Assembly: GCF_004765795.1 (NCBI RefSeq)
Contig: NZ_SBIV01000003.1
Span: 310,001-374,000 of the forward strand
Direction: 5' to 3'
Length of the DNA stretch: 64,000 bases
Source: Halorussus marinus
GTDB taxonomy: Archaea; Halobacteriota; Halobacteria; Halobacteriales; Haladaptataceae
Below the pieces are notes generated by a model. That model was given only the letters and a program-made list of their open reading frames with translations, ran no database searches and was not told where the DNA came from. The translations under genes and the position numbers were made by a program. Shown in pieces: positions 60,210-64,000 of the stretch (position 1 is its first letter; each line of letters starts with the position of its first letter).

Positions 60210-60234
60210 TGGGCCGGCCGGGAATCGAACCCGA
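60210..60234 (-). repeat. tRNA 3'-end-like fragment (T-arm plus acceptor)
   Basis: On the minus strand TCGGG-TTCGATT-CCCGG-CCGGCCC-A has a T-arm, a 7-nt acceptor strand and discriminator A. It matches 22 of 25 bases of the tRNA-Gly 3' end at 60310-60334, exactly 100 bp away. It has no 5' half, so it is a fragment, possibly an attachment-site remnant. Confidence 0.6.
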
Positions 60235-60274
60235 TGCCAGACCTCACTTCGTTCGGTCTGGCATCGGGTTCGAT
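60224..60274. repeat. 20-bp perfect inverted repeat forming a long hairpin
   Basis: ATCGAACCCGATGCCAGACC (60224-60243) and its exact complement (60255-60274) enclose an 11-nt loop. The left arm overlaps the T-arm of the tRNA-like fragment, so the fragment's T-loop is copied in reverse on the other side. Confidence 0.8.
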
Positions 60275-60309
60275 CTCTGGCCTGCTCGTTCGCTCGCACG
60301 CTCGCTCAC

Positions 60310-60380
60310 TGCGCCGGCCGGGAATTGAACCCGGGCTATGAGCTTGGGAAGCTCATGTCCTACCACCAATCGGCCTGCGC
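60310..60380 (-). tRNA. tRNA-Gly(CCC) with irregular 5' half
   Basis: T-arm CCGGG-TTCAATT-CCCGG, anticodon arm TGAGC-TTCCCAA-GCTCA with anticodon CCC (loop CUUCCCAA region), and acceptor 3' strand CCGGCGC-A are sound. The 5' half GCGCAGG-CC-GATT-GGTGGTA-GGAC pairs the acceptor except A5-G68, has C instead of T at position 8, and a D-stem with one mismatch and two G-T pairs. Length 71 nt fits tRNA-Gly. No clear TATA box at the usual distance. It lies at the boundary to the AT-rich island. Confidence 0.7.
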
Positions 60381-60617
60381 CGATTGTACTGTTTTCGGCG
60401 TCTTCTTGCTGTTTTCTACGTTCCGTACTTAGATTGAATGAGGTGTACTCCTATAAATCCCCGGTCTATTAGCTACTGGCTTATTCAAATTCAATGAGGG
60501 ACCTACTAACTCAGGCAGGAAGGGGAAATCAAAAAGTATGCTCGATAAACAATGGTTTTTCGTATATCACTAATCTAAACGATAATTCAATTGAGATGGC
60601 GGCGACTCCGTTAGTCC

Positions 60618-61262
60618 TTAGACGAGGATTCCAATTATGCCAAGAACAACTACAAGGATGAACCAAAAAATGGCTAAGCCGGCTGCAATTAGATAGCCCT
60701 TTTCAAGTGGACCGTCTGCTTTCCGCCATCTTCTTACAGCAATATTATCGCTTCTATCGGTGTTCTGGTTACTCTGTACTTTTCCAGTATCAGATGGCCC
60801 TTGTGACTTTGCCTCGACTTCCACATTCGGTTCTTCCTTTATTTCATATCCTTCACTGACACAACGTGATTTGAACCGTTCTATTGCTACTTCAACATTA
60901 TCTGTATGAACGGGGAGGACCAGTGTAGTGGTTTCTCCAGTTTCTAAATCAACCACCTCACTGCTGGCTCGCAAAACGGTATCACTTTTTCTACCGGATG
61001 CACTGTCACTAAATCCTGTATTGTAACCCATTACACCTCCGATGAGAACAAGTAGGATTCCAAATCCAATGGTTGGTGCTTTTGTAGGATTCGAGGTAGT
61101 GACTTTCGTGGTTGATTCTATCCCTGAACAGTGTCCATCACCCGGAATATCTCGTTCACCCGATACACATCCTTCTACAGTGCTTGTCTGAGTTGAAGGC
61201 ATAGCAATCCCGGCAAGAACGACTAACAATCCAATAAGGACGACGACTGATGTGCCTTTCAT
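60618..61262 (-). CDS. Island membrane protein, 214 aa, unknown
   Basis: AT-rich gene on the minus strand, ATG 61262. Membrane helices near residues 5-22 (VVVLIGLLVVLAGIAM), 65-82 (IGFGILLVLIGGVMGY) and 192-213 (LIAAGLAIFWFILVVVLGII). Between the first two is an extracellular loop with two Cys (EGCVSG, GHCSG), likely a disulfide; between the last two is a charged cytoplasmic region of about 100 residues. No family recognised. A very AT-rich promoter with ATAGTA/TACTAT arms lies just upstream. Codon use (ATA, TTA, AGA) is unlike the host part. Confidence 0.6.
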   Translation of the reverse strand: MKGTSVVVLIGLLVVLAGIAMPSTQTSTVEGCVSGERDIPGDGHCSGIESTTKVTTSNPTKAPTIGFGILLVLIGGVMGYNTGFSDSASGRKSDTVLRASSEVVDLETGETTTLVLPVHTDNVEVAIERFKSRCVSEGYEIKEEPNVEVEAKSQGPSDTGKVQSNQNTDRSDNIAVRRWRKADGPLEKGYLIAAGLAIFWFILVVVLGIIGILV

Positions 61263-62273
61263 ATCTTATCATTTCCGAAGATAGTACATATACTATATAT
61301 TACTTTCCTACTGATGGTAGTTGGATGCCAGAGTCCGGCAGAGGGAGTTTGACGCTATGCCTGAAAACAGGCTGGAAGGGGGACGCAGAGTAGTCCTGAG
61401 CAAGGTTCACTGATACGAACTGGAAGGAAGTGAGACCAGTTGTTCCGCCTTTAATTTGATGCAGAACTGCTGTGGCCTCTCGCTTTCCTACCTAAGTTGA
61501 GAACTGGGGCTTGATTTACAGTTATAGAGAACGGGCTACCAGTGTCCTTGGCTCAGGCGGGAAGGCATCCCATCAAGGATAATTGGACATTTGTAAAGTT
61601 TTGTGGGTCTGTGGTACTCTCTGCCCCCTTTCGTACCCTTCTAACTCAGAGCTTCATATGGAGTATAACAGGGCCAAGAGCTATTTTGTAGGACTCTGAC
61701 CTACCACGTCTTCAATAACACTCCTTCCAGCCTGTCCCAATGTACTCCGTACCAGTAGTAAACCTGTATCAGTAGTATCCCTAAGAACTACTGTTAACAC
61801 TCCTTCCAGCCTGTTACAGTAGTCCCCTGTTATATTAGTAACTGTATTAGTAGTATCAGTGCCCTTGTACCAGTGCCCCTTTCCAGAAGGATTTTGCGCT
61901 CACTTGGAAATTTGAGCGAAAGTCCTCCCCCACAAATCCATTTTAAGGCCTCTGACGGGCCGTCAAATCCATTTATTTTCTCTCCAAGTGTCTTCCGTCT
62001 TCTTCGAGAAAAGAATCGGTTAGAACGGCACTCAGGGCCGTATGGATAATACAAGTTTGATATAGAAATAATTCTCATAGGAATAGGGTTGGTATCTGAT
62101 GAGGACAAAGGAATTTTACAAATGTCCAATTCTGGTCCTCGTGGGGTTGGAACATCAGAGCCATCCCCCGGGGTGTGATATAAACGTAACCCGGCGAGAT
62201 GAGATAACGAAATTTGGCTATAGAAGGGGGCGAAGTGCCTCCGCCTTCCCGCCTGACTACGAGCTACTACTGT
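61263..62273. other. 1-kb gene-free region of the island, rich in repeats
   Basis: Besides five copies of the 12-bp motif it has a 17-bp perfect long-range inverted repeat, a repeated CAAATCCATTT (61933-61943 and 61964-61974), CGCTCA/TGAGCG arms near 61896-61917, and many CAGTAGTA/TAGTAGTAT stretches at 61750-61860. Reading frames here (for example 61830-62129, minus) show no family features. Candidate replication, recombination or RNA region. Confidence 0.6.
61581..62131. repeat. 17-bp perfect inverted repeat, arms 517 bp apart
   Basis: AATTGGACATTTGTAAA at 61581-61597 and its exact complement at 62115-62131. The left arm is 15 bp after a plus-strand copy of the 12-bp motif and the right arm precedes the last minus-strand copy, so the same two elements occur in mirror order on both sides. 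Confidence 0.75.
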
Positions 62274-62948
62274 CTAAGCTCCTTCTGAGTTCAATAAGTA
62301 ATCTGGATAAAGGTCAGAAGCGAGATTGATGAGATTGTATTCAAGGGATTCAAGGTTCGTCTTAAAGTCATAGAAGGGGCCAGTATCGTCAACACACCAT
62401 GCCTTAGTCCAGAAATAGACTGGTTCGCGTAATCGCCTCGTTCCAGACACAAAGAGTTCGTCAGCCCACTTCTGGTACTTTCCTTTTGGTCCTTTGTCTC
62501 GACTAACGCTATCGTCCTTGTGATGGCTCAGCACTGCGGCACTGAGTTCACCAATATGATATGCATATCCGTCACCCCAACGAGCAAGCTTCGTATTGTT
62601 AGTGCGGATATTTTCGAGATTAGCACTCAAGGTCTGCCCGTCTCGGCCATATTTCCCTGCTTTTCCGAGGTAGCGAGGCACAATACATTCTCCATCAAGA
62701 GTGTACATTAGATAGATAAGTCCCTCATATGTATCGTCAGTATCTTTCCAGTCTTGTACGACTTTCCATCCTTCCGTTCGCAGTAACTCTTCCATTTGGC
62801 GACTTCGGCGAAGAATAAGGCGGTTATCTCGCCCATACCGTTTTGTCTTTACTTCTCTTTCTTCTTTGGTCTCGAAAAGAGGGACTGGTTGTTCATTCTC
62901 TACATTTTCTGCTAACCATTGGTCCCAGACTTCACGCTTTGTCGGCAT
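62274..62948 (-). CDS. GIY-YIG-like nuclease family protein
   Basis: 224 aa, ATG 62948, AT-rich. The N-terminal helical part is charged (residues 1-70). A GIY-YIG-like core follows: GLIYLMYTLDGECIVPRYLG, then KAGKYG, ARWGDGYAYHIGELSAAVL near residue 125, and a C-terminal FYDFKTNLESLEYNLINLAS with a Glu in the catalytic position, ending in YLLNSEG. GIY-YIG enzymes cut DNA and occur in homing, repair, restriction and mobile elements. The LMY and YLG variants of the two name motifs are within the known range. No partner methylase is visible. Confidence 0.65.
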   Translation of the reverse strand: MPTKREVWDQWLAENVENEQPVPLFETKEEREVKTKRYGRDNRLILRRSRQMEELLRTEGWKVVQDWKDTDDTYEGLIYLMYTLDGECIVPRYLGKAGKYGRDGQTLSANLENIRTNNTKLARWGDGYAYHIGELSAAVLSHHKDDSVSRDKGPKGKYQKWADELFVSGTRRLREPVYFWTKAWCVDDTGPFYDFKTNLESLEYNLINLASDLYPDYLLNSEGA

Positions 62949-63169
62949 TGATAGTCAACAGTACCCTGAAAGAAAAGTTAGTCATATGTACTTTACCTTT
63001 CCCCCTTTTAGCCTGAATGAGAACTACTACAGTTGGGATAAAGGATTCGTCTTCGATTTTCCTCATCCCACACATATAATTAAACAATAATTATAACAAT
63101 TGAAGAAGTACATGGCTGTATAATCGAATTTCATTAAACCTATGTTAGAGCTTTGCAACAGTGATTCTT

Positions 63170-64000
63170 ATGAGAATCCTTTCCAAAGGCAGTGAATTGC
63201 CTTTTGTTCACGAATCAGTGGGTTGGGATGAGCATGAAAATTTCAAAGATTACGATGTTATTTTTATCAATTTAAAAACCCTAGAACAACATTCGGGGAA
63301 TTACGACCATCCCTACAACGAATCAGAAAATTCCCCAGTTGTCTTTGAAGGCTCCAATATTACGGAATTCGTTAAAACAGGGGGATATATGGTTGTATAC
63401 TTGCCTAATTCGCTAAAAGTAGAAATGGGAGGAACAACCACTAAGCAAAATCAGAATGGAGTGAGTCCAACTACCTTGTCTCCTCGCAGAAAACAGGGTA
63501 CAGAGGATGTTGAACCTTATAGTGAGTATGAACTGTTAGACTGGCTTCCGCTCTCATTAAGGATAAATACGAATGAATCAGGGGATTCCATAGGAGAGGT
63601 TGAGTCAGAGTGGGAGTGGTATTTTGGAAACCGGTTTAGCTGGGAGAAAACTGGTTTCAAATCTGATAGTAATAGCTACTCAATAAAATCAATTGCTGAG
63701 AATTCCTACTCAAAAAATATAGCTGGTAAAGCTTTGTACGATTATGGCTCATCAGAAGGCTATATCTCTCTAATACCCCCGGATGATGGGATTGCATATT
63801 CTGAATTCGTGAAAAATACTCTTCAAAAGGTATTTGATATAGATTTAAATATAGAAGGTCGTGCCCCACCGTCGTGGTTATCAGATTATACTGTTCCCAA
63901 TGAAGAGTGCATAGAAGAAGAGATTGAAGAAAAGAAAGAGCAAATAAATGAGTTACAAGAAGAATTAGAATCCATAACTAGATTCAAGGATTTATTGTAT
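63170..64000 (+). CDS. Island protein with acidic coiled-coil, C-terminus beyond window
   Basis: ATG 63170, open to the right edge (277 codons seen). The N-terminus MRILSKGSELPFVHESVGWD, then KDYDVIFINLKTLEQHSG, looks like an alpha/beta domain in which a strand ends in an FINL turn, as in flavodoxin- or GATase-like folds. A later segment YISLIPPDDGIAYSEFVKNT is followed by PPSWLSDYTVPNEECIEEEI and a Glu/Lys-rich coiled-coil. Proteins of this plan often end in a nuclease-like domain, but that part is outside the window. Codon use is AT-rich and foreign. Divergent from the GIY-YIG gene. Confidence 0.55.
   Translation, partial: MRILSKGSELPFVHESVGWDEHENFKDYDVIFINLKTLEQHSGNYDHPYNESENSPVVFEGSNITEFVKTGGYMVVYLPNSLKVEMGGTTTKQNQNGVSPTTLSPRRKQGTEDVEPYSEYELLDWLPLSLRINTNESGDSIGEVESEWEWYFGNRFSWEKTGFKSDSNSYSIKSIAENSYSKNIAGKALYDYGSSEGYISLIPPDDGIAYSEFVKNTLQKVFDIDLNIEGRAPPSWLSDYTVPNEECIEEEIEEKKEQINELQEELESITRFKDLLY

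What the first reader, a model, noticed from the sequence alone, without database searches (positions are those of the whole stretch)
60310..60390. tRNA-Gly(CCC) with intact 3' half but irregular 5' half at the island edge
Seen: T-arm, anticodon arm and 3' acceptor strand are regular, but position 8 is C, the D-stem has one mismatch and two G-T pairs, A5-G68 is unpaired, and no TATA box lies at the normal distance. The 5' end is part of an inverted repeat CAATCGGC (60367-60374) and GCCGATTG (60379-60386) crossing the gene border. The AT-rich DNA begins right after. Inference: integration or rearrangement replaced the 5' side; elements normally join tRNA genes at the 3' side, so this would be unusual.
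Basis: partly seen in the sequence, partly recalled or inferred. Interest (0 to 1): 0.55.

Follow-up and report, generated by a model that had tools for sequence, protein, structure and literature searches.

The report
Displaced tRNA end beside mobile element
The odd tRNA gene is not a damaged cell gene but the leftover end of a normal tRNA gene into which a small mobile element inserted itself; the regular tRNA gene sits at the element's other end, just outside the window, which is an ordinary, documented arrangement.

Summary
The interpretation mostly fails. A regular tRNA-Gly(CCC) stands 5.5 kb further on (C3:375822-375892), outside the window, between a tyrosine-integrase gene and nadE. 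The window copy is the far attachment site of a 5.4-kb element of 44% G+C in 70-72% G+C DNA: the host's old tRNA 3' end joined to an element-borne 5' end. Integration was thus at the usual 3' side. All 18 genus genomes keep a regular gene; 8 of 18 also have a second copy: five truncated near the anticodon loop, three full length (this genome, G008, G013). G008 has the identical irregular 18-nt 5' end, G013 a perfect tRNA. So the irregular half is an element sequence, not local damage. The same arrangement with related integrases is in print for haloarchaea (passages of PMC3119063, PMC7230728), and such fragments are known to be mistaken for tRNA genes (PMC9897764). Mildly unusual: the element end is itself tRNA-like. 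New member of a known kind; low interest.

The parts
60310..60380 (-). far attachment site of the element, called as tRNA-Gly(CCC); nt 15-71 match the regular gene with one difference, nt 1-14 differ at six positions
60310..60366 (-). 57 nt shared with the regular tRNA-Gly(CCC) at C3:375822-375878 (56 of 57); read as the host's original tRNA 3' end from the crossover onward
   Evidence: which side of the crossover each part came from is inference
60367..60380 (-). element-borne, degenerately tRNA-like 5' end; with the next 4 nt identical in G008
60367..60386 (.). 8-bp inverted repeat with 4-nt loop across the tRNA-like 5' border; not conserved in G008 or G013
60381..64000 (.). integrated element, left part; it goes on beyond the window to C3:375821 (5441 bp between the two tRNA copies), 44% G+C
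60452..60457 (-). TATA-like box 77 nt before the tRNA-like start; similar position in other element ends; direction of any promoter unknown
60618..61262 (-). ORF of 214 aa in the element, no family match
62274..62948 (-). ORF of 224 aa in the element, no family match
63161..64000 (+). start of an ORF of 434 aa in the element (cut by the window end), no significant family match

Best explanation
60310-60380 is the far attachment site of a 5.4-kb integrated element of a haloarchaeon. A tyrosine integrase recombined the attachment site of the circular element with the resident tRNA-Gly(CCC) gene, most likely within the anticodon stem-loop. The element supplied a new 3' end, so a complete tRNA gene remains beside its own upstream DNA and nadE. 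The host's old tRNA 3' end, with the DNA behind it, was pushed to the element's other end, where it now follows an element-borne 5' sequence. That sequence is itself degenerately tRNA-like, so programs call a whole tRNA. Shown: the repeat, the integrase, the composition, the regular gene, relatives with the same arrangement and relatives without integrase at the site. Inferred: the crossover point, descent of the 5' end from a tRNA gene, and that the copy does not serve as a tRNA.
For: Second, regular copy 5.5 kb away with 56 of 57 shared nt. Integrase of the phage integrase family between the copies, next to the regular gene (PF00589 8e-17; PHROG integrase). G+C 0.444 inside, 0.697 and 0.718 outside. 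Regular gene beside nadE in relatives; all 18 genus genomes have a regular gene, 8 of 18 a second copy. In G024, G022, G007 and G006 the flanking gene lies 0.2-0.8 kb from the tRNA with no hit to this integrase between. Same 18-nt 5' end in the G008 remnant; G013's element end aligns over 175 nt at 75% and carries a perfect tRNA there. Joining the regular 5' part to the window 3' part gives 7 of 7 acceptor pairs. Upstream motif GCTACGTT[CG]AAGT before 20 of 21 regular genes, before 0 of 7 far copies.
Against: No excised circle or strain without the element was seen. The crossover is not mapped; shared sequence starts at nt 15, earlier than the nt 26-30 of the truncated genus copies, so another crossover point is possible. 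G001 and G016 have a related integrase at the gene but no second copy was found. Six other genus genomes have 2.4-6.8 kb of other DNA there without this integrase or a second copy.
Confidence: 0.93

Rival explanations
1. One reading: the resident tRNA gene lost its 5' half through an unusual integration or rearrangement from the 5' side.
For: The 5' part is foreign and AT-rich DNA starts there.
Against: A regular gene stands at the syntenic place beside nadE, with integrase next to it; the same irregular 5' end recurs in another species' element remnant.
Confidence: 0.03
2. The window copy is a second, working tRNA-Gly(CCC) gene carried by the element.
For: Rfam 39.8 bits, above the cut-off of 29; full length; 6 of 7 acceptor pairs; G013's copy is perfect at 67.3 bits; a TATA-like box lies at -77.
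Against: C at nt 8, broken acceptor and D pairs; lacks the motif found before regular genes; G008's copy is further decayed, 32.6 bits, and not called by ARAGORN. Its score is below every listed tRNA of three other haloarchaea (lowest 42.8).
Confidence: 0.05
3. Attachment site as in the best explanation, but the tRNA-likeness of the element's 5' end is chance.
For: ARAGORN is permissive: 34% of random 14-mers give some call, 8% with about the full span; truncated copies of other elements are not called.
Against: 8 of 14 identities to the real gene (reached by 1.7% of random and 0.6% of element 14-mers) and six Watson-Crick acceptor pairs (0.42% and 0.04%); the homologous G013 end carries the real sequence.
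Confidence: 0.15

Closest known systems
tRNA-integrated elements of haloarchaea with HF2-like integrases (PMC3119063, passages read)
   Same: Complete tRNA next to the integrase, truncated copy of the same tRNA 5-48 kb downstream; also a tRNA-Thr copy of 57 nt that lacks 15 nt at the 5' end, 6.7 kb away, in Haloquadratum
   Different: Here tRNA-Gly(CCC), and the missing 5' part is replaced by a tRNA-like one
HF1-group haloviruses and proviruses (PMC7230728, passages read; VOLN27B record)
   Same: Integrase related (40-51% to listed viruses); a partial tRNA-Thr beside it is given as attP; [quoted passage not shown]
   Different: Those are 69-78-kb viruses and proviruses; this element is 5.4 kb and none of its proteins matched a structural family
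tRNA gene fragments from element integration listed as tRNA genes (PMC9897764, abstract and passages)
   Same: Low-scoring second tRNA at the far side of an integrated element
   Different: The worked cases are in Thermococcaceae

Membership tests
tRNA-targeting element integrated by a tyrosine recombinase | integrase gene next to the tRNA gene | tested here: met
   PF00589 and PHROG integrase, L004:10527-11675, 146 bp from the regular tRNA
tRNA-targeting element integrated by a tyrosine recombinase | direct repeat of the tRNA 3' part at both ends | tested here: met
   56 of 57 nt
tRNA-targeting element integrated by a tyrosine recombinase | complete tRNA gene kept at one end | tested here: met
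   67.3 bits, regular cloverleaf
tRNA-targeting element integrated by a tyrosine recombinase | site without the element in relatives | tested here: met
   G024, G022, G007, G006; no strain of the same species was available
tRNA-targeting element integrated by a tyrosine recombinase | excised circle with attP | not testable with these tools
   needs reads or PCR
functional tRNA-Gly(CCC) gene | regular cloverleaf with U8 | tested here: not met
   C8, one acceptor and one D-stem mismatch
functional tRNA-Gly(CCC) gene | promoter | tested here: inconclusive
   lacks the motif before 20 of 21 regular genes; TATA-like box at -77
functional tRNA-Gly(CCC) gene | expression and charging | not testable with these tools
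   needs tRNA sequencing
HF1-group halovirus provirus | virus structural genes | tested here: not met
   four element proteins searched, only the integrase matched

The most novel reading that the evidence does not exclude
Some haloarchaeal elements carry a whole tRNA gene as their attachment site, so that integration duplicates the tRNA instead of leaving a stump. The displaced copy (perfect in G013, diverged here and in G008) is transcribed from the element's own box near -75, giving the element a spare or altered tRNA, and its complete anticodon stem-loop serves as a second landing site for further elements.
Probability: 0.07. Interest if true: 0.45.

Novelty: new member of a known kind. 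Interest (0 to 1): 0.18.

Why it matters
It removes a probably spurious tRNA gene from this genome and explains an apparent 5'-side integration as an ordinary 3'-side one. The full-length, tRNA-like element end (3 of the 8 second copies in the genus) is a small lead on how such elements acquire attachment sites and how tRNA gene counts become inflated.

Tried and rejected
Replacement of the resident gene's 5' half: rejected by the regular copy. The inverted repeat as a conserved signal: 8-9 bp in 3 of 20 element ends (this one, G036, G052; each 1 of 500 shuffles), not in G008 or G013. Missing TATA box as a sign of damage: not diagnostic. Full-length copies as the mark of one integrase clade: in a 33-row tree (4 rows labelled full, 14 half, 15 unlabelled) the label needs 3 changes and 107 of 500 shuffles do as well; only G000 and G013 pair firmly (100/99). 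Of those labels G088 ('half') rests on a copy on another contig, and G052 ('full') is doubtful because a tRNA 5' end plus hairpin precedes its copy. A wider family for the 18-nt 5' end: exact only here and in G008; up to two mismatches it is found in 40 of 392 genomes, and the backward control also hits many (not tallied). Viral contigs scanned with the integrase: nothing. PADLOC: no match for four element proteins. Paper searches on tRNA-flanking repeats gave nothing on the point (as listings). Not followed: a further partial tRNA-Glu copy in G088 (C1:568644-568704, nt 16-75, 75%).

Full report
What is in the sequence. It scores 39.8 bits in Rfam against 67.3 for the regular gene.

What it is. 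The window is C3:310001-374000 of its genome. Nucleotides 15-71 recur at C3:375822-375878 (98% of 57 nt), there within a regular tRNA-Gly(CCC) next to nadE (PF02540). Between the copies lie 5441 bp at 44% G+C, in DNA of 70% and 72%. They hold a 382-aa tyrosine integrase beside the regular tRNA and three other sizeable ORFs without a significant family match. This is the anatomy of an element integrated at the 3' side of a tRNA gene: the gene is completed at one end, its old 3' end is left at the other. The copies differ at nt 5, 8, 9, 11, 12, 14 and 64: the first six lie in the element-borne 5' end; the last I read as a difference brought in by the element's 3' end (inference). The regular 5' part joined to the window 3' part gives 7 of 7 acceptor pairs.

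The organism. No call names it. G063, listed as of the same order, has its integrase at the coordinates of Salinarchaeum laminariae, and the virus relatives infect Halorubrum and Haloarcula, so it is a haloarchaeon.

Relatives. In the genus all 18 genomes have a regular gene. Eight have a second copy: truncated to 42-46 nt in G003, G009, G011, G010 and G012, full length in G000, G008 and G013. G001 and G016 have a related integrase at the gene but no second copy was found. The other eight have neither: in G006 and G007 the flanking gene is 0.7-0.8 kb away, and in the other six 2.4-6.8 kb of other DNA lies there. G036, of another family, is truncated too. At tRNA-Glu sites of the same integrase family (18 genomes) eight truncated copies lie on the contig of the gene and start at nt 28-32 (G006, G008, G009, G013, G016, G049, G073, G093); a ninth, in G088, is on another contig. 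Longer copies: G032 (from nt 5; called by ARAGORN; 48.1 bits), G052 (from nt 9; not called, 32.3 bits; doubtful), and an unexamined one in G088 (nt 16-75).

The irregular 5' half. It is not local damage. G008 has a remnant of such an element (about 1.2 kb between the copies, 26 aa of integrase matched) with the same 18 nt, found without mismatch only in these two of 392 genomes. The end of the G013 element, whose integrase is 76% identical, aligns with the window over 175 nt at 75% and has a perfect tRNA in this place. The window's 5' end is more like the real gene than random 14-mers are: as many identities in 1.7%, as many acceptor pairs in 0.42%. I infer descent from a captured tRNA end, decayed here; conversion of the G013 copy by the neighbouring gene is not excluded.

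Is it used? The motif GCTACGTT[CG]AAGT (2 mismatches allowed, 260 nt searched) precedes 20 of 21 regular genes at -39 to -185 and none of 7 far copies. I take it for part of the tRNA promoter (inference). A TATA-like box lies at -72 to -77 in 8 of 18 element ends, this one and virus VOLN27B included; one more has it at -63, nine have none; two of the eight are near copies of each other. The direction is unknown, so transcription through the window copy is possible but unproved.

Known or new. Passages of PMC3119063 describe the arrangement in haloarchaea with HF2-like integrases; [quoted passage not shown] abstract and passages of PMC9897764 warn of such fragments listed as tRNA genes; passages of the review PMC8371274 say that archaeal sites prefer the tRNA 3' end and may reach over the D-loop. 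I saw nothing on full-length tRNA-like element ends at tRNA-Gly(CCC) in the listings, a limited search. Verdict: a new member of a known kind.

Noticed in passing
window 60210-60285; loci L118, L124, L131, L141, L142, L145, L172, L179, L185, L186, L195, L199: tRNA 3' 'echo': the last 18 nt of a tRNA gene recur (up to 2 mismatches) 87-129 nt downstream, as an arm of a hairpin; its other arm resembles the antisense of the T arm where I looked by eye. Found at 6 of 30 tRNA loci here (30 best of 71 matches) and 6 of 30 in G049, G073 and G093 (30 of 130 matches); reversed-motif control 0 of 60. Window 60210-60233 is such a copy with more mismatches. No explanation; paper searches gave nothing on it.
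   Followed up: partly
upstream of the regular tRNA-Gly(CCC) in relatives, e.g. L071, L080, L068: Between the conserved GCTACGTTGAAGT motif and the tRNA, 16 of 20 loci show (by eye) one or two hairpin units that begin like the tRNA 5' end and end like its 3' end; G000, G011, G012, G022 show none. For other tRNAs of this genome such 5' echoes were no commoner than the control (2 of 30 against 2 of 30).
   Followed up: partly
window 60452-60457 and element ends of G013, several tRNA-Glu elements and virus VOLN27B (L168): TATA-like box at a nearly fixed distance (-72 to -77) from the tRNA start, in several after a short inverted repeat such as TTGCC..GGCAA. Promoter direction and target unknown.
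   Followed up: partly
G000 C7:31479-35884 and C11:67666-71767 (outside the window): Two dense clusters of 12 and 13 tRNA matches within about 4 kb each, many low-scoring; they look like tRNA arrays of a virus or plasmid.
   Followed up: no
window 63161-64000 and on (C3:373161-374465): The 434-aa ORF of the element has no significant match in Pfam, PHROGs or PADLOC.
   Followed up: no
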